Source: Planctomycetaceae bacterium (lineage in GTDB: Bacteria; Planctomycetota; Planctomycetia; Planctomycetales; Planctomycetaceae). Taken from it: a DNA stretch of 35,985 nt. Positions 5,438 through 21,850 of this stretch are shown one piece after another (within the stretch, counting starts at the first letter, position 1; every line of letters starts with the position of its first letter). A model generated the notes under the pieces. The model worked only from the letters and a program-made list of their open reading frames with translations. It did no database searches and was not told the origin of the DNA. A program made the translations under genes and the position numbers. The stretch lies in the NCBI GenBank assembly GCA_021732995.1, contig JAKFWA010000078.1, forward strand, positions 1-35,985, given 5' to 3'.

Positions 5438-6478
5438 TTAGTTCTGCAGGCTGAAGCCAGCAGGCAGCGGAACGCCTTCGGCGATTGTGCTGAGACGATA
5501 ATACGCGTTGATATCAATGTTCTCTGTCAGAGAACGAGTCGAGCCATCGCCGAACAGGAAGTTCGCAATGCCGCCGGTATGGTCGCTTCCGGCAGAGTCA
5601 AAGAACTGCTTGTTGATGCCGTTCTTGGTACTGAAGGATGTCGCGATGCCACCCCAGGCCCAGCCGTCGCTGTATGTCGCCTGCGGCGTCACTGGCTGAA
5701 GCTTGGGTCGCTGAAGTTCACCCACAACCAGCGTGTTGCTCATTCCGTCCGCGATATCCCGCTCGCGGGTCGCGCTGTTGGGATAGAACGCGCCCATATA
5801 CAGAGGCTGCGGCCCAACCAGGTACAACGGTCCGACGTTGCGGATCTCGTCCGGAGTCAGGTTGTAGCTGGCACGTGAGGTTACATCCCAGCCGGTACCT
5901 CTGCCGATGCATCCTCCGTAGTCGTTGCCGCCTCGCGTCCAGGTGGTATCAACTCGCTTCAAATAGGGATACGTCAGGGGCGCCATATCGCTGCGGCGTG
6001 TCGGGCAGTAGAAACCCGGAATATCACGAATTGGCGGATAGACTCCGGGCGGATTCACGTAGGTCGGATCGCCATTCATGTGCACGTTAAAGTTAAAATT
6101 CCAGGCTTTATACACGTCGCCCTGTTCCAGCTGCGGCAGGATCATCACCATCCAGCTTGAGCCGTGGCTGCCGGGGCTGTTGATCACCGTCGCCTCGGTG
6201 GGGTCGGTGGTGTGGACCTGCTGATTGTTCGCATCGGGCGAAGTGATCGTGAGCGACAATCGCGCAATCTCACCTGGCGGATACGCACCATGCGAAGTGG
6301 AGTAGTTGGCCAGTGCGAGCCCGATCTGCTTCAGATGGTTCAGGCACTGGTTGCGGCGAGCCGCTTCACGCGCCTGCTGCACGGCGGGCAGCAGCAGCGC
6401 CACCAGCACGGCGATGATGGCAATCACGACCAGAAGCTCGATCAGCGTAAAACCCTTGCGGCGTAAGCGCGGCATCAT
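5438..6478 (-). CDS. DUF1559 pseudopilin-like protein (H-X9-DG type)
   Basis: A 346-residue type IV/type II pseudopilin-like protein. The N-terminus MMPRLRRKGFTLIELLVVIA has the prepilin peptidase site (cut between Gly9 and Phe10, Glu at +5) and a hydrophobic helix, followed by the AREAARRNQCLNHLKQIGLA segment typical of DUF1559. The C-terminal signature reads HTGGIANFLFGDGS, one residue longer between His and Asp-Gly than the usual H-X9-DG. I chose ATG 6478 because AAGGA lies 5 bases before it; longer frames lack this. Large paralogous families of this protein occur in planctomycetes; the role is probably surface or secretion related. It is a single gene with its own terminator. Confidence 0.93.
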   Translation of the reverse strand: MMPRLRRKGFTLIELLVVIAIIAVLVALLLPAVQQAREAARRNQCLNHLKQIGLALANYSTSHGAYPPGEIARLSLTITSPDANNQQVHTTDPTEATVINSPGSHGSSWMVMILPQLEQGDVYKAWNFNFNVHMNGDPTYVNPPGVYPPIRDIPGFYCPTRRSDMAPLTYPYLKRVDTTWTRGGNDYGGCIGRGTGWDVTSRASYNLTPDEIRNVGPLYLVGPQPLYMGAFYPNSATRERDIADGMSNTLVVGELQRPKLQPVTPQATYSDGWAWGGIATSFSTKNGINKQFFDSAGSDHTGGIANFLFGDGSTRSLTENIDINAYYRLSTIAEGVPLPAGFSLQN

Positions 6479-6651
6479 TTGATTCCTTAATCGGCTCGGA
6501 CGGACATCTGTTCCGACTCTCAGCAATTCTAGCTGACGGACCCGCAGAACCAATCTATCGGCGATTTTCGACGAGCGTCAAATAGAAACTCAGTCTTCGA
6601 GCAGGTCGCGGGGCGCGGATTCCGCTGGCCAGACGAGGTGCTCTCGCCCGG

Positions 6652-17756: not shown

Positions 17757-18542
17757 CTATTTTCCGATTTGAAAACGATGCGTAGTCAGGACGAGATTTG
17801 GAACATCCCGACCGGCCAGGTAATTGTCACCATGTTTGGACCACCACTCCTTTGCTTGAACAATGTCCTCCGTTACGGGAACGCGCTGCTGGGATTGTGC
17901 GACGTTAATTGTTTTCCCTCGAATGCCGAGCATCATCAGATGGTCTTTGAGCATTCGATGCACGAAGTGCTCATCAGGCATTTTCTGACGCTCTGTCCGT
18001 TCGGCATAGCGTTGGGTTGCAACGACGTTGGTTTCCAGAAATGCCGCATCGTCGAGCATCCCAACCAGCAAAGGTGTTCCCCACCGACTGGCATAGCAAA
18101 CCGCATTGACTGCGAGGCGGCGATTGGAAACGGAGGGCGATTGTAATTGAGCAATTAGAAAATCGAACGCCTCTGGTGTCGGCACTCTGGCCAGCAGCAT
18201 GATGTGCCGCCGGCGCTCGTTGTAATCGCCATTTGGATTGGACAGGACGTTGATCGCACGCTCGACTGCCTGACAGACCGATTCGGGGGAGTCGAGGTCT
18301 ACCTTCGGTTCGGCAAGCCCGGCAATTCCAGTCAGCAATGTCGGCGGACGCTGTTTCGGGTCAACGACTTTCACAAGTTCCGCAGCCGCAGCCGAGCGTG
18401 ATTGCTCAATCAACTTGGTGCTGAACTCGAACTTCGATTCCGGCTTTCCGGGCTTGGATTCATCAGCGAAGACAGTCTGCACGCAGAGAACAGCGATGAG
18501 TAGCAGGGCAACTATGCGAGGTAAGATCGTCGTTGTCATCAT
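17757..18542 (-). CDS. Exported HEAT-repeat-like protein of unknown function
   Basis: A 261-residue protein with a signal peptide (MMTTTILPRIVALLLIAVLC, cut after VFA near 26). ATG 18542 follows GAGGGAT by about 6 bases; a longer frame to 18659 has no such site. The central part consists of paired helices with a HEAT/PBS-like look (TPEAFDFLIAQLQSPSVSNRRLAVNAV, RWGTPLLVGMLDDAAF), suggesting an alpha-solenoid scaffold in the periplasm. No catalytic residue is recognisable. It lies just downstream of the HEPN gene on the same strand but 195 bases away, with a hairpin between, so it is probably a separate unit. Confidence 0.72.
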   Translation of the reverse strand: MMTTTILPRIVALLLIAVLCVQTVFADESKPGKPESKFEFSTKLIEQSRSAAAAELVKVVDPKQRPPTLLTGIAGLAEPKVDLDSPESVCQAVERAINVLSNPNGDYNERRRHIMLLARVPTPEAFDFLIAQLQSPSVSNRRLAVNAVCYASRWGTPLLVGMLDDAAFLETNVVATQRYAERTERQKMPDEHFVHRMLKDHLMMLGIRGKTINVAQSQQRVPVTEDIVQAKEWWSKHGDNYLAGRDVPNLVLTTHRFQIGK

Positions 18543-18692
18543 GTAGATCCCTCGGTCCAGTGAGATAGCCCAACCAAATCTACTCGCAATGATCCGGAGT
18601 TGCCTGAACAACTTGCTTGCGCCCGAGGGTGTCCGGGTGACCCACCTCTCAAGCGGCACGAGATGAAATGCAGCTTTCTGTGGCTATGGCAC

Positions 18693-18737: not shown

Positions 18738-19451
18738 CTAAAGGGGGCCGATCATGTTGATATTGAGAGGAATCTTCCGAAAACGCTGATTGCGAAAAGC
18801 GTCGTCTAAGTAGACAATGAGTTGCTCGCAAACGTTGTTGACAGCATCTTCGACAACAACATACTCCGGCTCTTGAATGCCGTTTCGGTGAGTGCCGTGA
18901 GCCACGCCGTTTCGAAGTGTTAGCAAACGCTGGATTGATCCGCTGTGTGCGTCAACAAAACTATGCTCAAGACCAAGCAGGAACAGGTTTCTCTTCAGCA
19001 CCGAAACCTTCAGATTTGATTCTGAATCAATAGTGTCCTCTGGAACAACAACAGGTATTGCATTCAGGCGATCGACCTCTTCCACGAAGTGGCGCCGCCT
19101 CCAACGCGTATGTAGATTAGCATCATCCGGCAAAGCATTAGCAAATATCTTACACTTCGCGTCTCCAGACTGCATTGCCGAGAAAACCTTATCCCACGCA
19201 CCAGCAACAATCGCGGGAATTGCGCTCCTGCAGCTCAGGCCTGCCATATTCACTGCATCGCGATAATGCTGCAGTGCGAGTACACAAAAACCCTCAAAAT
19301 GTGAGTAGAGAAGAACCACCAGCGCCTTACGAAAGTCGTTCCGCCGCACCTCTACTGGTTCTGTCCCGATCAGGTTCTTGAGATGGCGAATCTCGTCGGT
19401 ACGCCATTCCCACTCGCGCTCGAGCTCAGCGAGAAAGTCCTCGCTTGTCAT
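18738..19451 (-). CDS. HEPN-domain putative RNase (MAE_28990/MAE_18760-like)
   Basis: A 237-residue, mostly helical protein. The HEPN active-site motif R-x4-H is present as Arg180-N-G-V-A-His185 (LRNGVAHGTHR). The N-terminal part (FRKALVVLLYSHFEGFCVLALQHY) matches my memory of MAE_28990/MAE_18760-type HEPN proteins, a predicted ribonuclease group. Its ATG overlaps the TGA of the DUF262 gene by 4 bases (ATGA), so the two are translationally coupled. HEPN proteins act as RNA-cutting effectors in toxin-antitoxin and abortive infection systems. Together with the upstream methyltransferase and DUF262 genes it is a probable defence effector. Base composition is AT-richer than the flanks. Confidence 0.83.
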   Translation of the reverse strand: MTSEDFLAELEREWEWRTDEIRHLKNLIGTEPVEVRRNDFRKALVVLLYSHFEGFCVLALQHYRDAVNMAGLSCRSAIPAIVAGAWDKVFSAMQSGDAKCKIFANALPDDANLHTRWRRRHFVEEVDRLNAIPVVVPEDTIDSESNLKVSVLKRNLFLLGLEHSFVDAHSGSIQRLLTLRNGVAHGTHRNGIQEPEYVVVEDAVNNVCEQLIVYLDDAFRNQRFRKIPLNINMIGPL

Positions 19452-20608
19452 AACGCAGCCCTAATCGCACTGGCAACGAGCTCAATTTTCTTTTCGTACA
19501 AGCTCTTGAAGTTCTTTCCGCCGCCTACAGTCAGTTTTGTTAATTCAGGATTTTTCTTGGCAGTCTCCATTGCAGCCTCAATCGCTCGCAACTGTGCGTC
19601 GCTCAGGTGCTCAACCGATACGCCCAAAGAGTCGATAACTTTCGCAACTCCCAGTGAAAATGCCTCGAAGTGGCCCTTGGAGAAACCACCTGAGTAGCGA
19701 TTATTTGCCCAGCGGCAGAAGGCTTTAGTTTCGAGCGTTCGGGATATGACATGAAAAGCATCGGAAAATATACACTCTTCTTTCGCGTAATTGAACTCGA
19801 TGTGATTCGTTGCCTCGCGATCGCTGACTCGCTCCATGTAGTCTGTCAAGAATGGATCGATGTTATGTACGAATTCCGCAAGATTATTCTTGAACGCAAA
19901 AAAGCGAAGCACCAACTCTTGCTCTCCCATTGTCTTGCGATACTCATCGGTAATGTCTTGGATGCATTTCTGGAAGTACTGATTCTTGCTTAGTTTAAAT
20001 ATAAAATCATTAAACTCTGATCCAAGAATTCTGATGGAGCAGTTTCGGATTTCCTGCTCGCTCAGGCTTTCCCCTCCGGTGTTAAGCCTCTTAAACATGT
20101 AGTAAGCAAATCTGGGGTTGCTCTCTCGCCGAACAATTTCCACTCGGAGGGTGGCTCTTCGAATTCGATATTTAAGGGACGTCGGAAGATCCTCGAAAGT
20201 GAATCCGTTCAACTCAGGGACGATGTCGCAGCCCTCAAGGAGAAGAAAGTCCTTGCCCCTCCTGATGGGTGGGTCCCGATCTGGCAGATCCAGCTCACCG
20301 CGTAGATAGAGGTACGTCGACAAGCGTTGCAGGCCATCAATCAATTCAAGGCAGCCATCCTTAACCTCAATCGCGTAGATTGGAGGCACTGGCATTTCCA
20401 ATGCAATTGACTCGATAAAACGTGAACATTTTTCTTCTGACCACCGAAAAATTCGCTGATACTCAAGCGAGATGTTTAGCTCACCTTGCTCGCACATGTC
20501 CGCGAGCTCGTTAAATGACATATCCAACGATCGCGAAAATGCTCGCTTGCGTTCCCGCTCGATCGCTAGATAGAGCTCATCGTGAGTGCACTGCTGCGTG
20601 GTCGGCAT
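19448..20608 (-). CDS. DUF262 (GmrSD/ParB-like N-terminal) domain protein
   Basis: A 386-residue protein. The DUF262 core is clear: EYQRIFRWSEEKCSRFIESI (49-68), PPIYAIE, DGLQRLST (91-98; usually DGQQR) and FKRLNTGG with SEQEIRN (172-189). DUF262 is the ParB/Srx-fold, nucleotide-binding half of GmrSD-type modification-dependent enzymes. The usual C-terminal DUF1524 HNH nuclease is not visible; residues 200-386 are helical, so any cutting probably depends on the HEPN partner or on the DUF262 fold itself. It begins 6 bases after the methyltransferase stop and overlaps the HEPN start by 4. One 60-base sample (19741-19800) is 38% GC by hand count. Confidence 0.9.
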   Translation of the reverse strand: MPTTQQCTHDELYLAIERERKRAFSRSLDMSFNELADMCEQGELNISLEYQRIFRWSEEKCSRFIESIALEMPVPPIYAIEVKDGCLELIDGLQRLSTYLYLRGELDLPDRDPPIRRGKDFLLLEGCDIVPELNGFTFEDLPTSLKYRIRRATLRVEIVRRESNPRFAYYMFKRLNTGGESLSEQEIRNCSIRILGSEFNDFIFKLSKNQYFQKCIQDITDEYRKTMGEQELVLRFFAFKNNLAEFVHNIDPFLTDYMERVSDREATNHIEFNYAKEECIFSDAFHVISRTLETKAFCRWANNRYSGGFSKGHFEAFSLGVAKVIDSLGVSVEHLSDAQLRAIEAAMETAKKNPELTKLTVGGGKNFKSLYEKKIELVASAIRAAL

Positions 20609-20614
20609 ATCTCG

Positions 20615-21850
20615 CTACCCCTTTTTGGAGAACCACAGCACTGTTTCCAATGCGTTCGTATCCTCTCGGTATTTTCTGCTTTTTGTGTTAACGCGACGAA
20701 TGTTTCGAGATGCCTCGTAATCGTGCGACTCTAAAAGATCCCAATGATGGAAAGCACCAAACTCCGTAACGATCTTTGCCAGGTTTGTGTGAATTCCTTT
20801 GTAATAGGAGTCTTGTACGACAATTACCGCCTGGCCGCCGCTTTTCAGACACCTGCCTATCTCACCTATCGACAAGAACAGATCGCTGAAATACTGAAGG
20901 TATGTCTTGTAGTAATACGATTTCGACGCTTTGCTGAAGTGCTCGCTGACACTCGATAGGAATGTAAGACATTCGCTGCCCCAAGATGCTTGCTCCAGAA
21001 TTGATTCTTTGCGAATGGTGCTGGTTCCCGTTGTGATGTCTCGTAATTTGCGAAGACTGAGAGAGCCAATGCCAAGAACAGCGAGTTCAAGGCGTGTCCC
21101 TATTGCATAGTCAATTCGCGTGCAATAGGGAGGGGATGTGAGCACGAAATCTATGCTCTCGGAGGGCACAGGCAGATTTGCTGCAGTGCCGACCTGAAGA
21201 TCCGCGGCTGCCGCGTTTGGTCGATCTTTGCAGAGGGTGATTCGTTCCTGGGCGACCTGGCTTATGAGTAACGAGATCTCTTCGGGGGTAGCCTGAATGC
21301 GTTCAGTAACCTCAGGTGACCTCAACCACGTTGGATTCTTAGTGCGGAATCGACTGCCGAGCCGCACAGCCGCGTCAAAAATGGCCGTCAGCATGAAGCA
21401 GTCAAGATCGGTGAGTTGTTCGATGGTTCTTCGTCCGCGAATAGCACGTTCCCATCGTCGAAAGGCGGACGCCGGTTCTGGCTCAAACCACGCATAGAGG
21501 GGGTCTTCGGAGTCAAGTAGGAGTCTTCCATGCTTCGTAACATGCTTGGCAACGCGTTCAACTTCTGAAGCGATGGAAGTTCGATTTGCTAGACGGCCTC
21601 GAGCCACGACAACCATAGCGGGGTTCACGTCTATACCGGCTGCCCGATGACCTGCATTGATTGCAGCCGACGTCGTCGTTCCCACGCCCAGCCATGGGTC
21701 CAGAATCAGTGAAGAGGCAGGGAGCTTAGCTTTCTCGACGACCTGAGCTGCGAAGTCATCCGAGAACATGGCATAAAATCGATACCAACGCTGATGTGAC
21801 AGCGCCGAAGGACTGCATAGTTTTGGCGATGGCAACACGCTGGCGGACAT
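20615..21850 (-). CDS. DNA methyltransferase (amino-methyltransferase, TSPPY type)
   Basis: A 411-residue class I S-adenosylmethionine methyltransferase. Motif I comes first (ILDPWLGVGTTT, about 49-60, with GIDVNP at 72-77) and the catalytic motif IV TSPPYCTRIDYA lies at 238-249. TSPPY indicates amino methylation, more often N4-cytosine. A helical insert of about 130 residues separates the motifs and may recognise the target. The C-terminal SGGQAVIVVQDSYYKG strand is typical. It is the first gene of the three-gene cassette. ATG 21850 has only a weak GGA upstream. No separate restriction endonuclease or specificity subunit adjoins it, so host DNA marking paired with the DUF262/HEPN genes is the simplest reading. 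Confidence 0.88.
   Translation of the reverse strand: MSASVLPSPKLCSPSALSHQRWYRFYAMFSDDFAAQVVEKAKLPASSLILDPWLGVGTTTSAAINAGHRAAGIDVNPAMVVVARGRLANRTSIASEVERVAKHVTKHGRLLLDSEDPLYAWFEPEPASAFRRWERAIRGRRTIEQLTDLDCFMLTAIFDAAVRLGSRFRTKNPTWLRSPEVTERIQATPEEISLLISQVAQERITLCKDRPNAAAADLQVGTAANLPVPSESIDFVLTSPPYCTRIDYAIGTRLELAVLGIGSLSLRKLRDITTGTSTIRKESILEQASWGSECLTFLSSVSEHFSKASKSYYYKTYLQYFSDLFLSIGEIGRCLKSGGQAVIVVQDSYYKGIHTNLAKIVTEFGAFHHWDLLESHDYEASRNIRRVNTKSRKYREDTNALETVLWFSKKG

What the first reader, a model, noticed from the sequence alone, without database searches (positions are those of the whole stretch)
18738..21850. Methyltransferase-DUF262-HEPN cassette, a probable defence system
Three coupled genes on one strand: amino-methyltransferase (TSPPY), a DUF262 protein lacking a visible HNH half, and a HEPN protein with R-x4-H. 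The first gap is 6 bases and the second is an ATGA overlap. Hand counts of 60-base samples in the cassette give 38% and 45% GC, against 58% in the kinase gene beside it. There is no ordinary restriction endonuclease. A plausible reading is DNA marking by the methylase, sensing by DUF262 and RNA cutting by HEPN.
Basis: partly seen in the sequence, partly recalled or inferred. Interest (0 to 1): 0.7.

Follow-up and report, generated by a model that had tools for sequence, protein, structure and literature searches.

The report
Methylase–DUF262–HEPN defence cassette
Three neighbouring genes (a DNA methylase, a DUF262 sensor-like protein and a probable RNA-cutting HEPN protein) form a cassette that recurs in many bacterial phyla and probably defends against phages by telling own DNA from foreign DNA and then cutting RNA; such a trio was listed in print in 2013, but I found no study of it.

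Summary
Window 18738-21850(-) encodes an amino-methyltransferase (MT, PF01555, TSPPY), a DUF262/GmrSD_N protein without an HNH half, and a HEPN protein (PF18735/PF18737, R-x4-H), with a 6-base gap, an ATGA overlap and low GC (48-52% against 58.6% outside). It is a conserved module: of 88 DUF262 relatives (the nearest ones, not a random sample) 85 have HEPN next, 33 have this MT family directly upstream, and 31 have all three, in nine phyla. Seeded by the MT, 9 of 12 evaluable viral-collection loci have all three genes, one has a distant DUF262 plus an R-x4-H protein, two have neither. The MT family forms one clade but accompanies divergent DUF262-HEPN pairs, in one genome in another order, so it changes partners. 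Motifs are near-invariant. The pair alone resembles PD-T4-2, a tested anti-T4 system; a 2013 HEPN survey lists HEPN with ParB nuclease and DNA methylase. Best reading: R-M-like, with an RNase effector (0.45). Chief evidence against self-marking: 55 of 88 lack the MT upstream, and 8 of 11 MT-less genomes checked hold no MT relative. New member of a known kind; function untested.

The parts
20615..21850 (-). DNA amino-methyltransferase (MT), 411 aa; motif I-like LDPWLGVGTT at residues 50-59, motif IV TSPPY at 238-242; first gene of the cassette
   Evidence: PF01555 3e-11; SPPY in 31 of 31 and DPWxGxGT in 30 of 31 aligned relatives
19448..20608 (-). DUF262 (GmrSD_N, ParB/Srx-like) protein, 386 aa; IDGLQR at residues 90-95; no DUF1524/HNH half
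   Evidence: PF03235 5.2e-22; PADLOC NsnA 7.2e-57, PD-T4-2_A 3.9e-36; D91 G92 Q94 R95 invariant in 73 rows; model pLDDT 93, top Foldseek match SspE E 7.6e-3
18738..19451 (-). HEPN protein, 237 aa; RNGVAH (R-x4-H) at residues 180-185; likely RNase effector
   Evidence: PF18735 1.4e-22, PF18737 5e-22; R180 and H185 invariant in 71 rows; all-helical model pLDDT 95
20609..20614 (-). 6-base gap between MT stop and DUF262 start
19448..19451 (-). ATGA overlap of the DUF262 stop and the HEPN start

Best explanation
An immune cassette that works like a restriction-modification system but with an RNA-cutting effector. The methyltransferase puts an amino-methyl mark (m4C or m6A) on host DNA; the DUF262 protein is a nucleotide-dependent DNA/modification sensor that keeps the HEPN protein silent; DNA lacking the mark (incoming phage or plasmid) switches the sensor, and HEPN cuts RNA, stopping translation and phage growth. 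Shown here: gene content, order, recurrence, conserved active-site motifs, no DNA endonuclease found in the cassette or the five neighbouring ORFs scanned, exchange of MT partners. Inferred: target of the mark, sensing, silencing, RNA target, phage protection.
For: Recurrence: of 88 DUF262 rows, 85 have HEPN within 500 bases downstream and 33 have the MT directly upstream; 31 have both. MT-seeded search: 9 of 14 loci full trio, 1 variant trio, 2 with neither, 2 cut by the locus end. In 392 planctomycete genomes the four best MT matches (own, G194, G164, G238) all lie in the cassette. The MT family is one clade (SH-aLRT 98) and accompanies divergent DUF262 lineages (L090, L100; L095 with an integrase ORF between), another gene order (L116) and a second DUF262'-HEPN' type (L097, L120): repeated association argues for a functional link. 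Active-site motifs near-invariant. The DUF262 proteins GmrSD, BrxU and SspE read DNA modification (review passages); the model's best fold matches are SspE, then ParB-family proteins. R-M-linked HEPN proteins were proposed to be reversibly silenced RNases (PMC3710099 section 10).
Against: 55 of 88 DUF262 rows lack the MT upstream, and only 9 of 80 DUF262-seeded viral loci have it. In 8 of 11 MT-less genomes checked no MT relative was found at E<=1e-10; the other 3 have weak matches, best 1.9e-28. One Roseomonas mucosa record has the MT in two ORFs beside an intact pair, though two other records have it in one piece. Two MT genes have no DUF262-HEPN beside them (L122, L130). Pearson agreement of MT and DUF262 tree distances over 30 rows is 0.245 (156 of 2000 permutations as high); it is 0.629 without L090 and L100, and Spearman over all 30 is 0.531. 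No fold match is significant at 1e-3. Nothing shows anti-phage activity of the trio.
Confidence: 0.45

Rival explanations
1. Type IV-like system: the DUF262-HEPN pair senses foreign DNA modification (as GmrSD and BrxU do), and the MT is an accessory, for example sharpening specificity or shielding host sites.
For: 55 of 88 DUF262 relatives have no such MT directly upstream; PD-T4-2, a DUF262+HEPN system, acts on T4, whose DNA is hypermodified (recalled); GmrSD and BrxU recognise modified cytosine.
Against: Does not by itself explain why one MT family repeatedly joins divergent DUF262-HEPN pairs.
Confidence: 0.22
2. PrrC-like guard: MT and DUF262 hold HEPN inactive in a complex; a phage anti-restriction factor, or loss of the complex, releases the RNase.
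For: Proposed for R-M-linked HEPN proteins in general (PMC3710099 section 10); coupled genes with an ATGA overlap.
Against: No restriction enzyme to be guarded was found; pairs without MT exist, so MT is not a general silencer.
Confidence: 0.2
3. Toxin-antitoxin-like module in which the methyltransferase modifies RNA, the ribosome or HEPN itself rather than DNA.
For: HEPN toxins occur with a modifying partner (MNT-HEPN modules, passage); the substrate of this MT family is unknown.
Against: Its matches are mainly DNA methylases (PF01555; PADLOC type II MTases; mostly DNA methylases in the PDB, over short stretches).
Confidence: 0.06
4. Chance neighbours: the MT merely lies in the same defence island.
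For: Defence genes cluster (established knowledge).
Against: Same order and tight spacing in nine phyla; re-association with divergent partners.
Confidence: 0.02

Closest known systems
MAE_28990-type HEPN operons (Anantharaman et al. 2013, PMC3710099, Table 1: 'In operon with a ParB nuclease and DNA methylase genes')
   Same: Three matching kinds of gene: HEPN of the MAE_28990 family, a ParB-type protein (which I take to be the DUF262 protein; [quoted passage not shown]
   Different: In the passages and section I saw, the trio is one table line without a system name, gene order, mechanism of its own or test; figures and supplements were not seen.
PD-T4-2 (Vassallo et al. 2022, PMC9519451; review PMC10952713; passages seen)
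   Same: DUF262 plus HEPN, given as PF18735; the window's DUF262 matches PADLOC PD-T4-2_A at 3.9e-36.
   Different: The passages seen name no methyltransferase for it; PADLOC's better match is NsnA; no PADLOC model matched the window HEPN at E<=1.
Menshen (that NsnA is a Menshen gene is recalled, not from a call)
   Same: DUF262 protein; NsnA 7.2e-57.
   Different: Menshen's DUF262 gene goes with a predicted OLD nuclease; here HEPN and MT.
GmrSD / BrxU type IV restriction enzymes
   Same: DUF262 half.
   Different: DUF1524 HNH half absent; a separate HEPN gene instead.
SspE (SspABCD-SspE)
   Same: DUF262 fold, top structural match though not significant at 1e-3; SspE senses a DNA mark.
   Different: No DUF1524 domain; a methylase gene instead of phosphorothioation genes.
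PrrC/PrrI
   Same: R-M component plus HEPN RNase in one locus.
   Different: PrrC has an ABC-type NTPase fused to HEPN and a complete type Ic R-M system.

Membership tests
MAE_28990-type HEPN operon (2013 survey) | HEPN domain of MAE_28990 type with conserved R-x4-6-H | tested here: met
   PF18737 5e-22, cut-off passed (PF18735 scores slightly higher); R180/H185 invariant in 71 rows
MAE_28990-type HEPN operon (2013 survey) | operon with a ParB-type protein and a DNA methylase | tested here: met
   window, reading DUF262 as the ParB-type protein; 31 of 88 relatives have all three genes
PD-T4-2 | DUF262 subunit (PD-T4-2_A) | tested here: met
   3.9e-36; 73 of 73 aligned relatives match, but all 73 match NsnA too
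PD-T4-2 | HEPN partner | tested here: inconclusive
   PF18735 1.4e-22, the family the review gives, but no PADLOC model matched the window HEPN and none of 71 HEPN rows matched a PD-T4-2 model at 1e-3
PD-T4-2 | anti-T4 activity | not testable with these tools
   needs experiment
Type II restriction-modification | DNA methyltransferase | tested here: met
   PF01555, SPPY; activity not tested
Type II restriction-modification | cognate DNA endonuclease | tested here: not met
   none in the cassette or the five neighbouring ORFs scanned
GmrSD type IV restriction | DUF1524 HNH nuclease | tested here: not met
   no such Pfam match; DHIYP-like pattern in 1 of 73 rows
Menshen | OLD-type nuclease partner | tested here: not met
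   none among the cassette and five neighbouring ORFs scanned

The most novel reading that the evidence does not exclude
A dispersed class of RNA-cutting restriction-modification: one methyltransferase family supplies the self mark and is traded among interchangeable DUF262-HEPN modules (at least two very divergent types), so that self/non-self discrimination on DNA is wired to an RNase instead of a DNA endonuclease.
Probability: 0.33. Interest if true: 0.75.

Novelty: new member of a known kind. Interest (0 to 1): 0.45.

Why it matters
If the methylase sets the self mark and DUF262 reads it, this would be a simple three-protein system in which a DNA mark controls an RNase, and it would make testable how DUF262 proteins sense DNA state, which the review leaves to future work for PD-T4-2, Menshen and Dazbog. 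The natural MT-bearing and MT-less versions and the partner exchanges give ready comparisons.

Tried and rejected
Chance juxtaposition: rejected by recurrence and re-association. A replacement methylase beside MT-less pairs: 93 of the 96 flanking genes listed were scanned (L071:6958-7383, L095:5206-5607 and L095:7519-8094 left out); only the first 25 of 125 families are shown, so single DNA methylases may be hidden, but no DNA methylase family matched two or more genes; restriction endonuclease XhoI matched 2. The distant control set was not scanned. A few pairs on plasmids and phages do lie near other methylases (L002, L004, L113, L114). MT in trans: 8 of 11 MT-less genomes checked have none at 1e-10 (11 of the 51 MT-less genome loci, mostly the Lachnospiraceae-type group).

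Insertion scar: around the kinase orthologue the same-genus genome G829 shows none of the window's other genes; in G812 (a 4,688-base contig) there is one partial match to window ORF 5438-6553; the remaining matches are ORFs overlapping the kinase gene. The 300-aa neighbour has no match at 1e-10 in 40 other family genomes. So no empty site could be shown; horizontal gain rests on GC alone.

HEPN fold search: HEPN toxins occur in the list but no match is significant. PDB sequence search: DUF262 weakly to DUF262 entries 20yv/20yw, HEPN none at 0.1. PADLOC on 71 HEPN rows: only isolated weak matches (RTasHEPN 2 members, four others 1 each, best 4.9e-4). The meaning of NsnA was not found: searches for NsnA/NsnB/NsnC and Menshen/NsnA (listings of 20 and 15) showed no paper defining it.

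Rows left out of the 88: L003 (DUF262 at the record end); L008, L009, L011, L021 (by identical lengths and scores the same loci as L033, L056, L101, L012); L013-L020 and L022 (more distant planctomycete DUF262: HEPN model matched in 4 of these 9, MT in none). The motif counts used 31 of 33 MT rows, 73 of 88 DUF262 rows and 71 of 85 HEPN rows, short and redundant ones left out.
Full report
What is there. On the minus strand of a contig of a 9.39 Mb genome (window = G000:C86; nearest tree relatives are Planctomycetota) three coupled genes run MT (20615-21850), DUF262 (19448-20608), HEPN (18738-19451). The MT has PF01555 and a TSPPY motif, the second is PF03235 without DUF1524, the third is PF18735/PF18737 with R-N-G-V-A-H. 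Spacing is 6 bases and a 4-base ATGA overlap. The cassette's GC is 48-52% by gene and its GC3 53-55%, against 58.6% GC outside and GC3 of 71-79% in seven other window genes; the 300-aa and 180-aa ORFs beside it are intermediate (GC3 60 and 59). The own genome has one DUF262 match at 1e-3, the cassette's.

Is it a unit? In 392 planctomycete genomes, 14 (own included) have a DUF262 match at 1e-20 and 9 have an MT match at 1e-15. The own genome, G194, G238 and G164 have MT-DUF262-HEPN in order; the other MT matches are at most 30% identical, with no DUF262 or HEPN model match in their six short loci. With the window, two more genome loci and five plasmids that makes 88 DUF262 rows: 85 have HEPN within 500 bases downstream, 33 have the MT directly upstream, 31 have both. 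Two MT-less rows (L055, L061) are cut by contig ends; L095 has the MT upstream with an rve integrase ORF between. Of the three rows without HEPN, L052 has a transposase gene next, L057 ends 136 bases on, and L078 is unexplained. By the labels the full trio occurs in nine phyla: Planctomycetota, Acidobacteriota, Bacillota, Pseudomonadota, Bacteroidota, Thermodesulfobacteriota, Myxococcota, Actinomycetota, Deinococcota; a Cloacimonadota contig (L057) has MT and DUF262 before it ends.

Reverse test. Searching viral contigs with the MT profile gave 14 loci: 9 have DUF262 and HEPN next (L125/L126 and L121/L128 are near-copies), L120 has a distant DUF262 and a 216-aa protein, L122 and L130 have neither, L123 and L131 are cut at the end. 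A DUF262-seeded viral scan kept 80 of 112 relatives: 75 have HEPN next (three of the other five end at or just after the DUF262 gene) and 9 have the MT just upstream. In 398 genomes drawn from the phylum of G396 (the genome of L040, Pseudomonas corrugata), 3 have an MT match at 1e-30: the cassette of G396 itself, a DUF262-HEPN-MT order in G757 (DUF262 only partly inside the short locus), and a distant MT in G798 with no DUF262 or HEPN match in its locus. In ten genomes with the trio (of 29 genome-collection loci with the MT) the MT profile finds one match each at 1e-20.

Exchange of partners. On the DUF262 tree (88 rows, quick method; L095 labelled as lacking MT) presence of the MT needs 6 changes, at least 4 by well-supported branches, against 26.5 for shuffled labels. 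On the MT tree (52 rows) the family is one clade with support 98 against seven distant methylases; inside it lie, in different places, the MTs of L090, L095 and L100, whose DUF262 genes branch outside or at the edge of the main group, of L116 (other order), and of L097 and L120. L097 and L120 share a second cassette type: MT, a DUF262 protein with VDGQQR (37% identical to each other), and a small protein (28% identical, E 1e-14) with R-N-Y-F-G-H in L097 and R-H-F-Y-A-H in L120, an R-x4-H pattern; Pfam gave no match for the L097 one, and the L120 one was not scanned. The trees are quick, with long branches, and single placements are uncertain. Pearson agreement of tree distances over 30 rows: MT-DUF262 0.245, HEPN-DUF262 0.862, HEPN-MT 0.338; without L090 and L100: 0.629, 0.484, 0.748; 10 to 12 of 27 splits are shared by each pair of the 30-row trees. 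So, apart from the exchange cases, the three genes have moved together to a fair extent, not perfectly.

Active sites and folds. SPPY is in 31 of 31 MTs and DPWxGxGT in 30 of 31; DGLQR in 72 and DGSQR in 1 of 73 DUF262 proteins; R180 and H185 are invariant in 71 HEPN rows. In the MT the least conserved blocks are 181-225 (0.26-0.32) and 91-120 (0.32-0.33), both between motif I and motif IV, against a mean of 0.49: candidate target-recognition regions, so targets may differ between members (inference). The DUF262 model (pLDDT 93) matches SspE first (E 7.6e-3), then Noc, ParB and PadC, in line with a ParB-like fold, but no match reaches 1e-3. The HEPN model (pLDDT 95) is almost all helix, with no significant PDB match.

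Literature. Seen: passages of PMC3710099 and its section 10; passages of PMC10952713, PMC9519451, PMC12839542 and PMC13092281; search listings otherwise. Table 1 of PMC3710099 lists MAE_28990 HEPN 'in operon with a ParB nuclease and DNA methylase genes', which I take to be this trio. PD-T4-2 is listed with DUF262 and HEPN PF18735, and defends against T4 natively and in K-12. I found no paper that studies the trio: searches, of open-licence PMC papers only.

Mechanism. Committed reading: methylase marks self DNA, DUF262 senses DNA lacking the mark, HEPN cuts RNA (0.45). The strongest point against it is that the pair often lives without this MT and, in 8 of 11 genomes checked, without an MT relative elsewhere; so MT-less sensors must read something else, or the MT is an add-on. 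The repeated joining of one MT family to different DUF262-HEPN pairs is the strongest point for a functional link. Nothing here shows phage defence, methylation or RNA cleavage by this locus.

Verdict. The window locus is a new member of an association already listed in 2013; the partner exchange, the other gene order and the second DUF262'-HEPN' cassette type are what I would follow up.

Noticed in passing
L097 8916-11922 (-): A second cassette in the same Myxococcales locus as a DUF262-HEPN pair: MT, distant DUF262 (VDGQQR), small R-x4-H protein; same type in viral contig L120 2046-5064.
   Followed up: partly
L116 1495-4229 (-): Other gene order, DUF262-HEPN-MT, in G757.
   Followed up: partly
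L001 2650-3950: In one Roseomonas mucosa plasmid record the MT reads as two ORFs beside an intact DUF262-HEPN pair; two other records show it in one piece.
   Followed up: partly
L052 5995-8173: Bradyrhizobium cassette with a DDE transposase gene directly after a short DUF262 ORF; HEPN not found.
   Followed up: partly
L114 2462-5891: Terrisporobacter phage TVCOM_ph1 carries a DUF262-HEPN pair followed by an Eco57I-type methylase.
   Followed up: partly
L113 140-2015: P2-like phage P2_4B2 carries a DUF262-HEPN pair (DUF262 28% identical to the window's) near its genome end.
   Followed up: partly
window 17757-18659 (-): A 300-aa HEAT-like neighbour (sub-threshold Pfam match) with no match in 40 other genomes of the family and GC3 of 60%; it may belong to the same acquired patch.
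   Followed up: partly
L073 7148-8407: HEPN ORF of 419 aa in a Lachnospiraceae bacterium, nearly twice the usual length: possible fusion.
   Followed up: no
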